This document shows, one piece after another, positions 3,859 through 58,007 of a stretch of 64,000 nucleotides of DNA (the stretch's first letter is position 1; each line of letters begins with the position of its first letter). The DNA comes from Alphaproteobacteria bacterium (GTDB taxonomy: Bacteria; Pseudomonadota; Alphaproteobacteria; Rs-D84): positions 152,155 to 216,154 of the forward strand of contig WRKW01000002.1 of assembly GCA_009777955.1 (NCBI GenBank). The letters run 5' to 3'. Below the pieces are notes generated by a model. It saw nothing but the letters and a program-made list of their open reading frames with translations, had not been told where the DNA came from and did no database searches. The position numbers and the translations under genes are program-made.

Positions 3859-4458
3859 ATGAATATATTCCTTACCCTTGATACTTGTGTGTTCGAAAAT
3901 TACAACATGAACACCGAAACAATGCTGAAACATCTGACCCCTGTTTTAAAGGCTGATACAAAATTTGTTTTGTCGGAAATCGTATTACTTGAACTTAAAA
4001 GCCATTATGAAACTACATATCGGGCGGTTTCCAGGTCGATTGAATCGGTTCAGAAAAAACTTTCAAGCTTTACAAACAATCAAGCAGTTTTCAACAAGGT
4101 TGCTGAACTGCAAAATTTCTTGCAAAAAGAAAAGGCATCAAATAACGCGTTGGATAAATATATTAAAGAAACAAAAACCGAAATCATACCATACGGAAAC
4201 ATAACTTTGAACGAAGTTGTTCATGCTTATTTCAACATGGATGCTCCGTTTCGCCCTGGCAAGAAAAAGGCCGAATTTCCAGATGCCATAGCCGTTTATT
4301 CGCTGGACAAATGGGCGGCGAACAACAATTGTAAAATAATGGCCATATCCAGCGATAACGACTGGTGCGTTTTCGCCGAAAAATATCCAGAACGGTGGAG
4401 TTGTGATAAGACGATAGAAGCCGCGGTAAAACGACTGGGATACCATGTACGTGGGTAA
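3859..4458 (+). CDS. PIN-domain (DUF4935-like) protein
   Basis: N-terminal FLTLDTCVFEN with later ELKSHYE and PDAIAVYSLDKWA...ISSDNDW acidic residues. Confidence 0.7.
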   Translation: MNIFLTLDTCVFENYNMNTETMLKHLTPVLKADTKFVLSEIVLLELKSHYETTYRAVSRSIESVQKKLSSFTNNQAVFNKVAELQNFLQKEKASNNALDKYIKETKTEIIPYGNITLNEVVHAYFNMDAPFRPGKKKAEFPDAIAVYSLDKWAANNNCKIMAISSDNDWCVFAEKYPERWSCDKTIEAAVKRLGYHVRG

Positions 4459-7931: not shown

Positions 7932-8328
7932 ACTGTGCTTTCCTGACAAACCCTGGTCAGCAAAGGAATTCGCATCGCTACAAAAATCTGGTGCAGAAAT
8001 AGTTGGCAGTGATAACGGATTCATAGTCTGGCGCATAGCGGCAGATGAGTGCGAAATTATTACAATTGGCGTTCATCCCGAATATCGTGGCACTGGCATT
8101 GCAAGTGCTATGCTGCAATTGATGGAAAGGGAAATACTTAAAAAAAACCATATGAATCAAATTAAAATATTTCTGGAAGTTTCGGTGGATAATCTGACCG
8201 CGCGTGCATTATACGAAAAACACGGTTACAAACAGATTGGTATCCGGCCGGGATATTATATGTCACCAAGATCTTTGGCAAAAGTGGATGCGGTTGTTAT
8301 GGAAAAAATCATAAACCCAACATTATAA
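7903..8328 (+). CDS. rimI: ribosomal-protein-alanine N-acetyltransferase (GNAT)
   Basis: CFPDKPWSAKEF, IGVHPEYRGTGIASAML; tsaB-rimI arrangement. Confidence 0.85.
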   Translation: MLNNLVNLHKLCFPDKPWSAKEFASLQKSGAEIVGSDNGFIVWRIAADECEIITIGVHPEYRGTGIASAMLQLMEREILKKNHMNQIKIFLEVSVDNLTARALYEKHGYKQIGIRPGYYMSPRSLAKVDAVVMEKIINPTL

Positions 8329-11369: not shown

Positions 11370-12647
11370 TCAAGAACAAAATTCCAGAACCCGGGGATCA
11401 AAAATAACATCTCTGGCGCGCAACGGCGTTGCAATATGCATATCGCTTGCCTTGCGGGTTCGTGATAATGCCACATATGTCTGGCCATGCGCGAATGCTC
11501 CACGCGAAATATCAACCACCACTGTGTCCAAAGTCTTGCCCTGGGCTTTATGTATCGTCATGGCGTACCCAAGTGCCAGCGGGAATTGTTTATAACTTCC
11601 GACTTCATTCTCTGTTAATTTATCGTTTTCATCGCGCGAATACTCCATTTTTTCCCATTTTTCTTGCTTGACTTCGACTATCTTTTTTTCACCATCTAAC
11701 AGCCGCACTTTTATGTCCTTTGCATTCAATTCGCATATTATACCCATACTCCCATTATGCCATTCACCACGATCGGAATTTTTTACAAATACCACCAGGG
11801 CACCGATTTTCAAGTTAAGATTCATGGGCGCGGGCACGTCTTTTTCATTAAAGGTGCCGGACAATTCCCCGGAATAAGCAACCACAGGTGCCGCAATTTG
11901 CGCCAACCGTACGGAATTTATGTTATCTGCCACCGCACGGAATGGGGTAATTATCATGGCATTAGCCAGACGGACGGCATCTTCGATTTTACAGGCATTA
12001 AAATATTCCAATGCCTGTGCTGGATTTTCAGCACCGCGCAATACTGTCAAATTATGCAACAATGCATCGTCGCTCTGCCGGTATACAAGGTCAAAATCCG
12101 CACGTGAAAAATCTGCTCTTTGATATGCATAAGAATCAAAAAAATATGCATTCGGATGACCGTATGCTTCGGAATAGTATTGTTCTGCATCACGGGTGAT
12201 TACGGGCGGTAATTGAAACAAATCCCCAATCGCGACAACTTGCAAACCACCGAACGGTGCATTATTCTTTCGTGCCTGACGGGCCAATATATCCATGGCA
12301 TCCAACAAATCTGGTGGCACCATTGATATTTCATCTATGACAAGCAAATCCGCCGCGGCAAGAACATTGCGTGGACGGGATTTAAGTTTCAGTAATTCTG
12401 GCGCAACAAAACCCCGCGGCGCGATTTGAAAAAGCGAATGGATTGTCTGCCCCCCGATATTCAGTGCCGATACCGCTGTCGGACATGCGCAAATTATGCG
12501 TTTCTTTGATGCTGATTTCAGATAATTAACGAATGTCGATTTTCCGGTTCCGGCCTGTCCCAATATAAGCATATTTCGCAAATCACTTTCGATCAGATTA
12601 AATGCGTGTAATTGGATATCGTTTAAAATCGGTGCAATCAAAGACAT
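11370..12647 (-). CDS. Pif1/RecD-like SF1B helicase
   Basis: GQAGTGKST, VIDEISMV, VAIGDLFQLPPV, LALGYAMTIHKAQGKTLD, GQTYVALSR. Confidence 0.88.
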   Translation of the reverse strand: MSLIAPILNDIQLHAFNLIESDLRNMLILGQAGTGKSTFVNYLKSASKKRIICACPTAVSALNIGGQTIHSLFQIAPRGFVAPELLKLKSRPRNVLAAADLLVIDEISMVPPDLLDAMDILARQARKNNAPFGGLQVVAIGDLFQLPPVITRDAEQYYSEAYGHPNAYFFDSYAYQRADFSRADFDLVYRQSDDALLHNLTVLRGAENPAQALEYFNACKIEDAVRLANAMIITPFRAVADNINSVRLAQIAAPVVAYSGELSGTFNEKDVPAPMNLNLKIGALVVFVKNSDRGEWHNGSMGIICELNAKDIKVRLLDGEKKIVEVKQEKWEKMEYSRDENDKLTENEVGSYKQFPLALGYAMTIHKAQGKTLDTVVVDISRGAFAHGQTYVALSRTRKASDMHIATPLRARDVIFDPRVLEFCS

Positions 12648-53770: not shown

Positions 53771-53815
53771 TGGTGGCTGCGACGGGATTTGAACCAGTGA
53801 CACACGGATTTTCAG
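53771..53815 (-). pseudogene. tRNA-Phe 3' half
   Basis: Minus strand CTGAAAATCCGTGTGTCACTGGTTCAAATCCCGTCGCAGCCACCA; acceptor CGCAGCC pairs with GGCTGCG at 57796-57802. Confidence 0.88.
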
Positions 53816-54341
53816 CATTATGCGCTATTTTTTAGATAACGCGGATTTCCGCCGATTGCAGGGGTTTTTTTACCCCGCCATAAAATCTCGTGTGTCCGTG
53901 GTGTAAAATCACGCATAAACTAAAACAGGTTTCGCTTGTATCGCAATCCTATTTTTTCCAAACCATTTTTTATTTCTGACCAGCCGATATTCCAATCGAG
54001 CTGAAAACAAAAAACGATTTCCCCGACCACTTCTTGCGATGAATATAACACGCAGGTTTTCTTTTTTCAAGGCAATTTTTCTTAACACTTTTTCCCCGCG
54101 TTTCCCGCCATAGAAATCCACCGCCAATTTTGTGAAATTACGCTAGCGATTTTTTGATTTTTATTTTTTAGATTTTGGTCGTTCAACCAACAACAAAGGA
54201 AACCTGTGTAAAACGGACTTAAATAGACACATCATGGCTTATTGCTGTTCTAGACACGGGGGAATTTTAGTCCCATGTTCCACCAATATTCGCATAAAAA
54301 ACGCCGTAAAATACGGCGTTCAAAAACACAACCGGATGAGT

Positions 54342-54668
54342 TTATACATGCCAGTTTTGTGTTTTTGGGACGTTTGTATTCCCTGACGAACTTACGGACG
54401 TTTGCCACTTGGGGTAATCATCGCATTTTGTACGATTATTCTCCCAGTGCAATGGGTTCAAGTTGGCCAAGTCGTCTGTTCCGCCTTTGGATACTGGCTT
54501 ACGATGATCTACTTCCCACGCATAATTTGTGGTTTTTCCGTAGTCATCATATTTAATCCAAGCACCTGCATAATCTTTACGCCAGACTTTTGGATCAACG
54601 TTGGGAACAATTATCGCTTTTTTCCAGACATCATCCGGATTAAAAGCAACTTCGTTTTTAAGTGACAT
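54342..54668 (-). CDS. HNH endonuclease
   Basis: WEVDHRKPVSKGGTDDLANLNPLHWENNRTKCDDYP. Confidence 0.82.
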   Translation of the reverse strand: MSLKNEVAFNPDDVWKKAIIVPNVDPKVWRKDYAGAWIKYDDYGKTTNYAWEVDHRKPVSKGGTDDLANLNPLHWENNRTKCDDYPKWQTSVSSSGNTNVPKTQNWHV

Positions 54669-54812
54669 TTCAGTCCCTTTTGGTTATGTCAAATCGACCT
54701 GGCAACAAACAATTTGACAATTGGTTAGGGACTTTGCTATAATAGGTACGTCGAAGATGCCTATTATCAGGTATCCCATAAAATCCGCTGCACTCGCAGT
54801 GGATTTTATTTT

Positions 54813-55196
54813 CTAGAGAGAATCCGACCTTGTGCCACCTCTCTCTCGTGCAGTTGATAGTTTTATAATTACCATCCCATCACTGACATCAAACTCATAA
54901 AAACTAGTTTTTTCCGGTAAAATCGAATAATACTCAAAAAATGACTTTGCGGAAAAATCCAACCCTTTTTCTCTATATCTTACATTCGTAACCCCATTTC
55001 CGTCATCTTCCTCCAGAAAATGGATTCCGATTTCTTGAGAGTCCTTATTATAAAATACAGCGGCGAATTTTTGCCTGTCTTTGTTCAGGCCGAGTTTTTC
55101 ACGTGCGCCCTCATTGAAACTGACATTTCCTATGTTTGATATGGATACTCTCGCCTTAAATATCCCCCCAAACTTATTAAATCTCTCAAAAGCCAT
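54813..55196 (-). CDS. hypothetical protein of the RM island
   Basis: 127-aa ORF; no recognised domain. Confidence 0.55.
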   Translation of the reverse strand: MAFERFNKFGGIFKARVSISNIGNVSFNEGAREKLGLNKDRQKFAAVFYNKDSQEIGIHFLEEDDGNGVTNVRYREKGLDFSAKSFFEYYSILPEKTSFYEFDVSDGMVIIKLSTARERGGTRSDSL

Positions 55197-55423
55197 CGTT
55201 TTCTCCTTTTGTTAGGTCCATCGATTTGCTTTATTTACATTTTACATAAAATTATACGACTTGTCAAGGAAAATTTAACGACTCCTGTAACTGCAAGTCG
55301 CGTTCACATCTGTCAGTTATAGCTTTACAAACAAAACCCCATAAGGTCGTTCTTATGGGCAAATTATCAGAAAAGACAAATGCGCATAAAATTAATAAAC
55401 TCCTACTTGCGTTTATTTATGTT

Positions 55424-56485
55424 TTACAAAAGGTTCATTTCCATTTTATAGTAAAATTCTATATCGTTTATAAGGATATTGGTGTCGGATTCATTCATAT
55501 CAGCTAACCAATCTTTCAATTCGTTTATGGTTATTATTTCTTCGATCGCTTGAATTATTCTATCTTTTATAACTTTCATTCCGCCATGCTTGGCATTTAT
55601 AAAATCTGCAATTTCTTTGTTTATAACTTTGGCTGGCTTGTTTGTTTTTACAACAAATGTTATAGGAAAGTGCAAAACCTTATCTATATCCAAAAGATAT
55701 TTGCTGTAATTATCAACCTCTGTTACTTGAAAAAAACGACCAAGTGGACGCATGACGAAGTCGATACCACCATCGTTCGCATTTGTGCGACCTGTTTTAT
55801 ATAGAGTTAAATAATGCTCTTCCAGATCCTTTTTAGTATATCCAAAATAGACTTTGGTGTTTTTGTAATGATTTTTCAGAACTGCAAAAGCAATTATTTC
55901 AAATATACGGGCTTCTGCGTCGTCTTTCAGGAAACTTTCTAATTTTCGCTTTTTATCTGCGATACTAGAAATCCCACGTAATTCTTCTAAATCTGCCACA
56001 AGAGCATTATCTTTGGCTTTCAATAGATCTATATATTTTTCAATAATTTCCAAAATTGCTTTAGATATGTCAATTTTGCCAACATACAAATATTTAATGT
56101 TCAGCAAGTATTTGCCATTTTCAATAATTATCGGTGGGGTTTGATCGTTCGTTTTATTCGCAAACTCGAAATTGACACGATTATTCAATCCATGGTTTTG
56201 TAATTTTTCTCCCCCATACTGACTTCTGCAAAATTCAAATAAAGTCATATATGGAAATCCTGCGAACTTTTTATATTCTTCGCGTTTATTATAAAATTTT
56301 TGGGCATAAAAGTGTGCCAGAGAGTATATAGCATATATATTAGCCAAACTCTTGCGAGTTTTAGTGTTCCCGCTAATCGCTCCCATTTTAGAATCTAGAT
56401 ATTGTATCATCGGGCTGCTGTCATAAATCGCTTCAAAATCTTTTTTGAAATTACTTTGTAAAATTTGTTTGATAAAATCTTTCAT
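55424..56485 (-). CDS. putative type II restriction endonuclease
   Basis: Overlaps MTase by 4 nt; possible PD-(D/E)XK motif GGIDFVMRPLGRFFQVTEVDN. Confidence 0.65.
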   Translation of the reverse strand: MKDFIKQILQSNFKKDFEAIYDSSPMIQYLDSKMGAISGNTKTRKSLANIYAIYSLAHFYAQKFYNKREEYKKFAGFPYMTLFEFCRSQYGGEKLQNHGLNNRVNFEFANKTNDQTPPIIIENGKYLLNIKYLYVGKIDISKAILEIIEKYIDLLKAKDNALVADLEELRGISSIADKKRKLESFLKDDAEARIFEIIAFAVLKNHYKNTKVYFGYTKKDLEEHYLTLYKTGRTNANDGGIDFVMRPLGRFFQVTEVDNYSKYLLDIDKVLHFPITFVVKTNKPAKVINKEIADFINAKHGGMKVIKDRIIQAIEEIITINELKDWLADMNESDTNILINDIEFYYKMEMNLL

Positions 56486-57402
56486 GCAGCTATCCTAAAT
56501 AAGTTGTGTTCGTTGCTGTGTTTAGACCGGTTTGTTGTTTTTCGTTCTTTTATTTTGGTTAATGATTTGCCATTGTATTCTTGACGCAATCCAGTTCGGC
56601 GCAATCCAATTTCATAAAACTCTGGATTTAAGTCAATACCAACCGTTTTTCTACCAAGTTTAAGCGCAACCGCAGATGTTGTAAAACTTCCAGAAAATGG
56701 ATCAAGGATCACATCGCCTTTATTACTGGACGCTTTGATTATGCGTTCTAGTAATAATTCTGGTTTCTGCGTTGGATGATTTTCATATTCATCCATACGA
56801 AATCTTACTCGTGAGAAATCCCATACATTACCAGGCACCTTCTGATTGTTATATGGTTGTGGCGGATCTTTTCTATAATCTATCAATCCGCGAACCGCAC
56901 CAGTTTTCGCTTCTACCAATATATCTTCGTAGTTGAATGTATAATCGGAATTCTTAGATTTATTTATCATTAAAATCGGTTCATATAGAGACCCATACAT
57001 TTTTTTGGATTGCACGCCGGAACTATCATACGACCAAATTATACGCGACAGGACATTATATTTTTTCGACGCATGTACATCTAGAAATGACATGAATTGG
57101 GTGGCGGTCATAAAATACATTGTCCCATCATCTTTTAAGACACGCATACACTCGTCGATCCATTGTTCGCACCACTTCAAATATGATTCTGTTGAATCCC
57201 ACTTATCCATATTATTTCCAAAATCCTTGCCTATATTGTATGGCGGATCAGCAAAAATAAGATTTATTGATTTAGATTTTATAGATTTCAATACATTGAT
57301 AGAGTCACCAAGAGCAACCAAACAATCACGATTCGCTTCATGCGATTTGCAAGCATCAAAATTATTAAATAGCTCTAGCATTTTTCCTTCCCTGCAAACC
57401 AT
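56482..57402 (-). CDS. adenine-specific DNA methyltransferase, YhdJ-like
   Basis: IFADPPYNIGK, WSYDSSGVQSKKMYGSLYEPILM, LIDYRKDPPQPYNNQKVPGNVWDF, HPTQKPELLLERII, LDPFSGSFTT. Confidence 0.92.
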   Translation of the reverse strand: MVCREGKMLELFNNFDACKSHEANRDCLVALGDSINVLKSIKSKSINLIFADPPYNIGKDFGNNMDKWDSTESYLKWCEQWIDECMRVLKDDGTMYFMTATQFMSFLDVHASKKYNVLSRIIWSYDSSGVQSKKMYGSLYEPILMINKSKNSDYTFNYEDILVEAKTGAVRGLIDYRKDPPQPYNNQKVPGNVWDFSRVRFRMDEYENHPTQKPELLLERIIKASSNKGDVILDPFSGSFTTSAVALKLGRKTVGIDLNPEFYEIGLRRTGLRQEYNGKSLTKIKERKTTNRSKHSNEHNLFRIAA

Positions 57403-57519
57403 AGTTTATTGATTTACAGATAAAAATGCAATAGAGAAATTATTTTACATATGTTATACATATAGAAATTTTTACAAAAAATCGGCTCTCGGAGAAACCT
57501 CTGAAAGCCATGGATTTAC

Positions 57520-57595
57520 TGGTGGCTTGAACTGGATTTGAACCAGTGACACACGGATTTTCAGTCCGATGCTCTACCAGCTGAGCTATCAAGCC
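57520..57595 (-). tRNA. tRNA-Phe (anticodon GAA), intact, inside the RM island
   Basis: Reverse complement GGCTTGATAGCTCAGCTGGTAGAGCATCGGACTGAAAATCCGTGTGTCACTGGTTCAAATCCAGTTCAAGCCACCA. Confidence 0.93.
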
Positions 57596-57764
57596 AAAAC
57601 TTTTTCACCCGATTTTTTACGCGGTTTTCCGTGTAAAATCCGGTGTATCAAATGTGTAAAACGAATATTGGTGTAAATCGCTTTTTATCACATTTTATCT
57701 GTTTTTATCCTCTTTTTAGCGCACAAACCTGCGGCGTTTATATCTCTACCTATAAATGTTAAGC

Positions 57765-57802
57765 TTTTCAGTCCGATGCTCTACCAACTGAGCTACGCAG
57801 CC
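57765..57802 (-). pseudogene. tRNA-Phe 5' half
   Basis: Minus strand GGCTGCGTAGCTCAGTTGGTAGAGCATCGGACTGAAAA, then unrelated sequence. Confidence 0.88.
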
Positions 57803-58007
57803 ATAAGTGCCAATCAATATATAACAACATTACCGGAAAATCAAGCTAAAAAAATTTGACTTTTGTGGAATAATCATTTATAATGCGTTTATTCCAGTTT
57901 GTCGCTTTATATCAGCGGCCAAAATTTTTCAGATTTTTCCCGAACAGCCGGCCGCAGCAAAGCGGTTCCAAAGAGAAAATAGGTCTTGTCAAAAACAGGA
58001 GGCTGAT

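What the first reader, a model, noticed from the sequence alone, without database searches (positions are those of the whole stretch)
53771..57802. RM island splits a tRNA-Phe at the anticodon loop and carries its own intact tRNA-Phe
Seen in sequence: the 5' half GGCTGCG...ATCGGACTGAAAA (57802-57765, minus) and 3' half CTGAAAATCC...CGTCGCAGCCACCA (53815-53771, minus) reassemble into one tRNA-Phe whose acceptor strands pair (GGCTGCG/CGCAGCC). They lie 3956 bp apart with CTGAAAA at both junctions. Between them are an HNH nuclease, a putative REase, an adenine MTase and a complete tRNA-Phe with a different acceptor (GGCTTGA/TTCAAGCC) and its own T-run terminator. Integrases normally restore the target tRNA; here neither junction does. 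Inference: the island supplies a rescue tRNA, making itself costly to lose. No integrase ORF is visible inside.
Basis: partly seen in the sequence, partly recalled or inferred. Interest (0 to 1): 0.85.

Follow-up and report, generated by a model that had tools for sequence, protein, structure and literature searches.

The report
Restriction island carrying replacement tRNA-Phe
A 4-kb restriction-modification island has inserted into the anticodon loop of this bacterium's only ordinary tRNA-Phe gene, leaving it broken in two, and it carries a complete replacement tRNA-Phe: the scheme known from some phages as tRNA-dependent lysogeny, here in an island that has no visible phage genes or integrase.

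Summary
A host tRNA-Phe is split at a 7-bp core (CTGAAAA, anticodon loop); neither junction restores it. The 3,956-bp insert carries an HNH protein, an unknown protein, a Type II restriction enzyme, a YhdJ-like methylase and a complete tRNA-Phe. That tRNA is the only intact tRNA-Phe found in the assembly (42 tRNAs, 98.6% complete). Relatives normally have one uninterrupted gene. The broken gene keeps a promoter conserved in its genus, so it is the host gene. Both insert ends carry same-direction GTGTAAA repeats. A near-identical copy of their 19-bp block lies 14 bp upstream of a tyrosine integrase in a relative, so these are probably integrase arm sites. This is the architecture of tRNA-dependent lysogeny (mBio 2024, PMC10865867), but in a small island with no phage gene or integrase found. 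"Costly to lose" holds only for imprecise loss: precise excision would rebuild the host tRNA, whereas recombination between the duplicated tRNA halves would give mismatched acceptor stems. The replacement tRNA has no recognisable promoter and lies 169 bp beyond the split in the host gene's direction, so it may use the host promoter (inferred). New variant of a known kind.

The parts
57816..57844 (-). host tRNA-Phe promoter TTGATT-17-TATATT
   Evidence: promoter scan; the same TTGATT...TATATATT arrangement lies upstream of tRNA-Phe in genus mates G003 and G004, and similar ones in G001 and G026
57765..57802 (-). 5' half of the host tRNA-Phe gene ('A'), ending in the core CTGAAAA
57765..57771 (-). 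core copy 1, CTGAAAA (anticodon loop)
57596..57764 (.). promoter-proximal insert end with three GTGTAAA sites (57631, 57654, 57671, + strand); includes the 19-mer GTGTATCAAATGTGTAAAA; putative integrase arm sites
57520..57595 (-). complete replacement tRNA-Phe (GAA) ('B'), with encoded CCA
   Evidence: ARAGORN and Rfam 72.4 bits; folds as a cloverleaf, z -2.48
57466..57519 (-). hairpin plus T-run downstream of B (terminator-like)
   Evidence: fold -17.2 kcal/mol
56482..57402 (-). adenine-specific DNA methyltransferase (YhdJ/PRK11524-like, Type II)
   Evidence: PF01555 6e-59; PADLOC MTase_II 3e-124; NF008572 445.7 bits against cut-off 292
55424..56485 (-). Type II restriction endonuclease
   Evidence: PADLOC REase_II 3.5e-75; 433 relatives found, many of the best in other phyla
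54813..55196 (-). protein of unknown function, 127 aa
   Evidence: no Pfam, NCBIfam or PADLOC match; no viral relative found
54342..54668 (-). small HNH nuclease, 108 aa
   Evidence: PF01844 7e-7
53816..54341 (.). promoter-distal insert end with two GTGTAAA sites (53901, 54206, + strand)
53809..53815 (-). core copy 2, CTGAAAA
53771..53815 (-). 3' half of the host tRNA-Phe gene ('A')

Best explanation
A small integrative element inserted by tyrosine-integrase-type site-specific recombination between a 7-bp core in its attP and the anticodon loop of the host's single tRNA-Phe gene. The shared core is too short to rebuild the tRNA, so the host gene was destroyed. The element carries a complete tRNA-Phe that replaces it, so the cell survives. 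The tRNA lies at the promoter-proximal end in the host gene's direction and without a recognisable promoter of its own, so it is probably read from the broken gene's promoter and released by RNase P. The element's cargo is a Type II restriction-modification system. The integrase has been lost or acted in trans. SHOWN by sequence: the split, the core, the sole intact tRNA-Phe found, the conserved host promoter, the shared end repeats and the RM genes. INFERRED: the recombinase type, replacement function in vivo, promoter sharing, and the order of events.
For: Exact 7-bp core at both junctions; rejoining gives a complete tRNA with a 7/7 acceptor stem. Only one intact tRNA-Phe found in a 98.6%-complete genome. 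In the 81-genome set, most relatives have one 5' half and one 3' half of tRNA-Phe, i.e. one uninterrupted gene; 178 of 190 family genomes match the 3'-half pattern, nearly always once. Host promoter conserved at the split gene. GTGTAAA is the top 7-mer shared by the two insert ends, 5 of the 11 + strand copies in 64 kb, all in one direction; random zone pairs did as well in 0.4% of trials, probably ones overlapping this locus. The block GTGTATCAAATGTGTAAAA occurs exactly only here and 32 bp after the tRNA-Phe of G026 among 208 genomes of the order; the only 1-mismatch copy, in G121, lies 14 bp upstream of a tyrosine integrase gene that sits beside a tRNA-Asn 5' half cut at the anticodon loop. 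In G026 a tRNA-Phe 97% identical to the broken host copy lies 3.9 kb from a tyrosine integrase that itself adjoins a displaced host 3' half. The published precedent has the same anatomy.
Against: No integrase in the island, and the genome's other phage-type integrase belongs to a conventional tRNA-Pro island with different end repeats. No empty-site or free form of this very element was found. Expression of B is not shown. The assembly is a draft and reads could not be inspected. G026 and G121 are incomplete, so neither fully proves a second un-restored case.
Confidence: 0.84

Rival explanations
1. A conventional island that originally restored the tRNA; later insertion, deletion or tandem elements separated the restored parts, leaving B as a leftover of a second element.
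For: Conventional anticodon-loop islands occur in the same genus (G004: restored tRNA-Phe plus displaced 3' half 2.7 kb away) and in the same genome (tRNA-Pro). The block shared with G026 suggests related elements met at tRNA-Phe before.
Against: The two outer halves are each other's match (7/7 acceptor; 5 or 4 of 7 in hybrids with B) and the cores are identical; B is complete and self-consistent.
Confidence: 0.09
2. Misassembly or chimeric contig at one or both junctions.
For: Draft assembly; the two tRNA copies share 34/38 and 41/45 bases, which can confuse assemblers; the locus is 6 kb from a contig end.
Against: A misjoin between similar tRNA copies would give hybrid acceptors, but the outer halves match each other; the junctions fall exactly at a 7-bp core flanked by putative arm repeats.
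Confidence: 0.04
3. The two halves are transcribed separately and joined in trans into a functional tRNA, with B redundant.
For: The 60-nt flanks of the halves pair slightly better than shuffles (-24.1 against -16.0, 2.7% of shuffles as good).
Against: No bacterial tRNA splicing machinery of this kind is known to me; an intact tRNA-Phe is present; the pairing signal is marginal and used mononucleotide shuffles.
Confidence: 0.01

Closest known systems
tRNA-dependent lysogeny (Guerrero-Bustamante & Hatfull, mBio 2024, PMC10865867), actinobacteriophages such as Fionnbharth, Gaia, Mollymur
   Same: Short attP/attB core (8-17 bp there, 7 bp here); host tRNA not rebuilt at attL or attR; [quoted passage not shown] host has a single copy of that tRNA; putative arm sites flank the core.
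   Different: There: temperate phages of Actinobacteria with their own tyrosine integrase; targets Lys, Ile2 and Leu; the Fionnbharth phage tRNA has a strong promoter of its own. Here: a 4-kb RM island in a gut-type alphaproteobacterium, no integrase or phage gene, target tRNA-Phe, and a replacement tRNA apparently without its own promoter.
Lj965 prophage of Lactobacillus johnsonii (as cited in PMC10865867)
   Same: Fails to rebuild the tRNA and codes for a cognate tRNA.
   Different: A prophage in a Firmicute; the original papers were not read here.
Conventional anticodon-loop islands (Islander, PMC4383910)
   Same: Tyrosine-integrase islands whose crossover lies in the tRNA anticodon loop.
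   Different: They carry a fragment of the target and restore the tRNA at one junction; this one does not. The same genome has a conventional example in tRNA-Pro.

Membership tests
tRNA-dependent lysogeny | Short common core, so no functional tRNA at either junction | tested here: met
   7-bp core CTGAAAA; both junctions broken
[quoted passage not shown]
   tRNA-Phe (GAA) at 57595-57520
tRNA-dependent lysogeny | Disrupted host tRNA is single-copy | tested here: met
   Only one intact tRNA-Phe found in the assembly and typically one in relatives; essentiality itself not tested
tRNA-dependent lysogeny | Element encodes a tyrosine integrase | tested here: not met
   None in the island; other PF00589 matches in the genome lie elsewhere, one of them in a tRNA-Pro island
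tRNA-dependent lysogeny | Element is a temperate phage | tested here: not met
   Only RM, HNH and unknown genes found
tRNA-dependent lysogeny | Arm-type sites flank the attP core | tested here: inconclusive
   Directional GTGTAAA repeats at both ends; similar block upstream of an integrase in G121; binding not tested
tRNA-dependent lysogeny | Element tRNA is required for viability of the integrated state | not testable with these tools
   needs a deletion test
Conventional tRNA-targeting genomic island (Islander type) | Target tRNA restored at one junction by an element-borne fragment | tested here: not met
   5' half runs into GCTTAAC; 3' half is preceded by CATAATG
Type II restriction-modification system | REase gene adjacent to a DNA methylase gene | tested here: met
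   Overlapping genes, matches; adjacent pair also in L181 and L231
Group I or II intron | Intron RNA family match | tested here: not met
   No intron match at E<=1

The most novel reading that the evidence does not exclude
A non-phage defence island persists by tRNA replacement with promoter capture: its promoterless tRNA is expressed only after insertion behind the host tRNA promoter, and the divergent acceptor stems make recombination between the duplicated halves lethal, so an integrase-less RM island is locked into the genome.
Probability: 0.3. Interest if true: 0.72.

Novelty: new variant of a known kind. Interest (0 to 1): 0.56.

Why it matters
tRNA-dependent integration was described for phages, mainly of Actinobacteria, and its authors asked how far it spreads. 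This is a clear anatomical case in an alphaproteobacterium, for tRNA-Phe, in a 4-kb defence island rather than a phage. It shows how a mobile element can take over an essential RNA gene and fix itself in a small genome without a classical toxin-antitoxin pair. It also warns that island finders which require a restored tRNA plus an integrase would miss such elements.

Tried and rejected
Second intact tRNA-Phe elsewhere: none found. Group I/II intron: no Rfam match. Trans-spliced split tRNA: marginal pairing only, 2.7% of shuffles. Resident integrase acting in trans: the phage-type integrase on contig 1 belongs to a conventional tRNA-Pro island with different end repeats (TTGTTGAGT). Free or viral form of the element: no viral contig has the joined attP, the tRNA body, a relative of the G026 integrase or of the 127-aa protein. 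RM genes as a marker for the island: relatives are widespread and the two alphaproteobacterial ones are not beside a tRNA-Phe. tRNA-Phe next to the REase homologue in Sunxiuqinia (L259): intact, no split copy.

Full report
WHAT IS THERE. On the minus strand the 5' half of a tRNA-Phe gene lies at 57802-57765 and its 3' half at 53815-53771; both include CTGAAAA, the seven bases of the anticodon loop, and joined they give a 76-nt tRNA-Phe with a fully paired acceptor stem. Between them lie, in order on that strand, 169 bp of spacer, a complete tRNA-Phe (57595-57520), a hairpin with a T-run, a methylase, a restriction enzyme, a 127-aa unknown protein and a small HNH protein. Below, 'A' is the split tRNA and 'B' the complete one. 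No integrase or integrase remnant lies inside, and no intron family matches.

B IS THE ONLY INTACT tRNA-PHE FOUND. The assembly has 1.02 Mb in 14 contigs and is 98.58% complete. Searching it with B returns B, the two halves of A, and weaker matches that ARAGORN types as tRNA-Thr, tRNA-Met and tRNA-Val. RF00005 finds 42 tRNAs. The 30 best-scoring were fetched and typed and contain no second Phe; the remaining 12 were not typed one by one, but the DNA search would have shown a close tRNA-Phe among them. A divergent copy among those, or any copy in the missing 1.4%, cannot be excluded.

A IS THE HOST GENE. Upstream of A's 5' half is TTGATT-17-TATATT, in a stretch (TTGATTTTCCGGTAATGTTGTTATATATTG) that resembles the region upstream of the uninterrupted tRNA-Phe of genus mates G003 and G004, and more loosely G001. 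Genes near the locus also lie near tRNA-Phe in G003, although the local order has been rearranged. In 81 genomes most relatives show one 5' half and one 3' half, that is, one ordinary gene, and 178 of 190 family genomes match the 3'-half pattern, nearly all once.

THE ENDS LOOK LIKE INTEGRASE SITES. An unbiased 7-mer test puts GTGTAAA first among words shared by the two insert ends: three copies in the 170 bp next to the 5' half and two in the 526 bp next to the 3' half, all in one direction, out of 11 on the + strand in 64 kb. Of 1,000 random zone pairs 0.4% did as well, with an identical p-value, so they are probably placements overlapping this same locus. The longer block GTGTATCAAATGTGTAAAA occurs exactly in only two of 208 genomes of the order: here, and in G026, 32 bp downstream of that genome's tRNA-Phe. 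The only one-mismatch copy, in G121, lies 14 bp upstream of a 406-aa tyrosine integrase gene, with a second similar block (GGTGTAGACAATGTGTAAAACG) further upstream; next to it is a tRNA-Asn 5' half that ends at CTGTTAA, also the anticodon loop, with a promoter-like sequence before it. In about 0.91 Mb of G121 that I could fetch (89% complete) no intact tRNA-Asn was found. G121 could be a second non-restored case, or a conventional island that displaces the 5' half and restores at the end missing from the assembly; I cannot tell.

G026. This genome of another genus in the family has a tRNA-Phe 97% identical to the broken A of our genome, against about 80-84% for other relatives, with a similar promoter. 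Its anticodon-stem and T-arm pattern was found in no other of the 190 family genomes searched. It lies 3.9 kb from a tyrosine integrase whose start adjoins a displaced 3' half of a different, presumably native, tRNA-Phe; a decayed second 3' half lies 0.9 kb on the other side. The native 5' half was not found. The simplest reading is that a tRNA-Phe from a relative of our genome moved into G026 with a mobile element and took over. That is inference.

HOW IT PROBABLY WORKS. Recombination between a 7-bp core in the element and the anticodon loop destroyed A; B replaces it. B points the same way as A, lies 169 bp beyond the split, and has no promoter-like match in front of it (a simple consensus scan, so weak evidence), while A's promoter is intact and no terminator was seen between. 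I therefore think B is transcribed from A's promoter and cut out by RNase P, at perhaps 60% given the main explanation. If so, the tRNA is expressed fully only after integration at this site.

ON 'COSTLY TO LOSE'. Precise excision at CTGAAAA would rebuild A, so loss by that route should cost little. Recombination between the duplicated tRNA stretches (34/38 and 41/45 identical) would give hybrids with 5 or 4 of 7 acceptor pairs, probably non-functional, and a deletion that removes B without rejoining A would leave no tRNA-Phe. With no integrase in the island, the imprecise routes are the likely ones, so the island may in practice be locked in. That is an inference.

WHAT IS KNOWN. Guerrero-Bustamante and Hatfull (mBio 2024, PMC10865867) described tRNA-dependent lysogeny: short cores of 8-17 bp, no rebuilt tRNA, a phage-borne tRNA of the same isotype that is required, arm sites, and a lambda-like tyrosine integrase. 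They cite Lj965 of Lactobacillus johnsonii as a possible case elsewhere. A Sinorhizobium study states that its authors had described the mechanism for other prophages (PMC12429752). Our island works like this but fails two defining features, being a phage and encoding an integrase, so I call it a variant and not a member. Conventional islands restore the tRNA (PMC4383910); G004 and the tRNA-Pro island of this same genome are conventional and serve as contrast.

THE CARGO. The methylase passes NCBIfam's YhdJ model well above its cut-off, and the restriction enzyme matches a PADLOC Type II model. Relatives of the enzyme are widespread in gut and environmental genomes of many phyla, the closest found being two alphaproteobacterial MAGs at 61%, where the same enzyme-methylase pair is not beside a tRNA-Phe. 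The RM pair is therefore ordinary mobile cargo; the tRNA arrangement is what is unusual.

LIMITS. No reads were available, expression is untested, the integrase is missing, and the two supporting genomes are incomplete. The literature search covered open-licence papers only.

Noticed in passing
L160 (own genome, contig 1, 142000-158000): A conventional integrative island of about 7.8 kb with a tyrosine integrase sits in the anticodon loop of tRNA-Pro (GGG): displaced 3' half near 4000-4050, restored tRNA at 11843-11919 (-), end repeats TTGTTGAGT.
   Followed up: partly
L082 (G026 contig 6), 3489-9791: Two displaced 3' halves of the native tRNA-Phe in opposite orientations flank an integrase, an Abi_C protein and a foreign-looking tRNA-Phe; the native 5' half is missing.
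   Followed up: partly
L268 (G121 contig 25), about 8115-8158: tRNA-Asn 5' half cut at the anticodon loop beside a tyrosine integrase; no intact tRNA-Asn found in the fetched assembly (89% complete).
   Followed up: partly
L145 (G004 contig 11), 8922-11690: Conventional small island in tRNA-Phe: restored gene plus displaced 3' half 2.7 kb away, no integrase recognised.
   Followed up: partly
L147 (G031 contig 52), 334-408 (-): Odd tRNA-Phe-like sequence with a mismatched 5' acceptor strand near a contig end; may be another island junction.
   Followed up: no
own genome contig 2, 142370-142837: Weak PF00589 match in a 563-aa open frame about 1.1 kb after tRNA-Asp; nature unknown.
   Followed up: no
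window 57765-57802 and 53771-53815: The split tRNA and G026's tRNA-Phe share an unpaired T-stem position (ACTGG/CCCGT), while the island's tRNA pairs fully (ACTGG/CCAGT); this may reflect past exchange between the copies.
   Followed up: no
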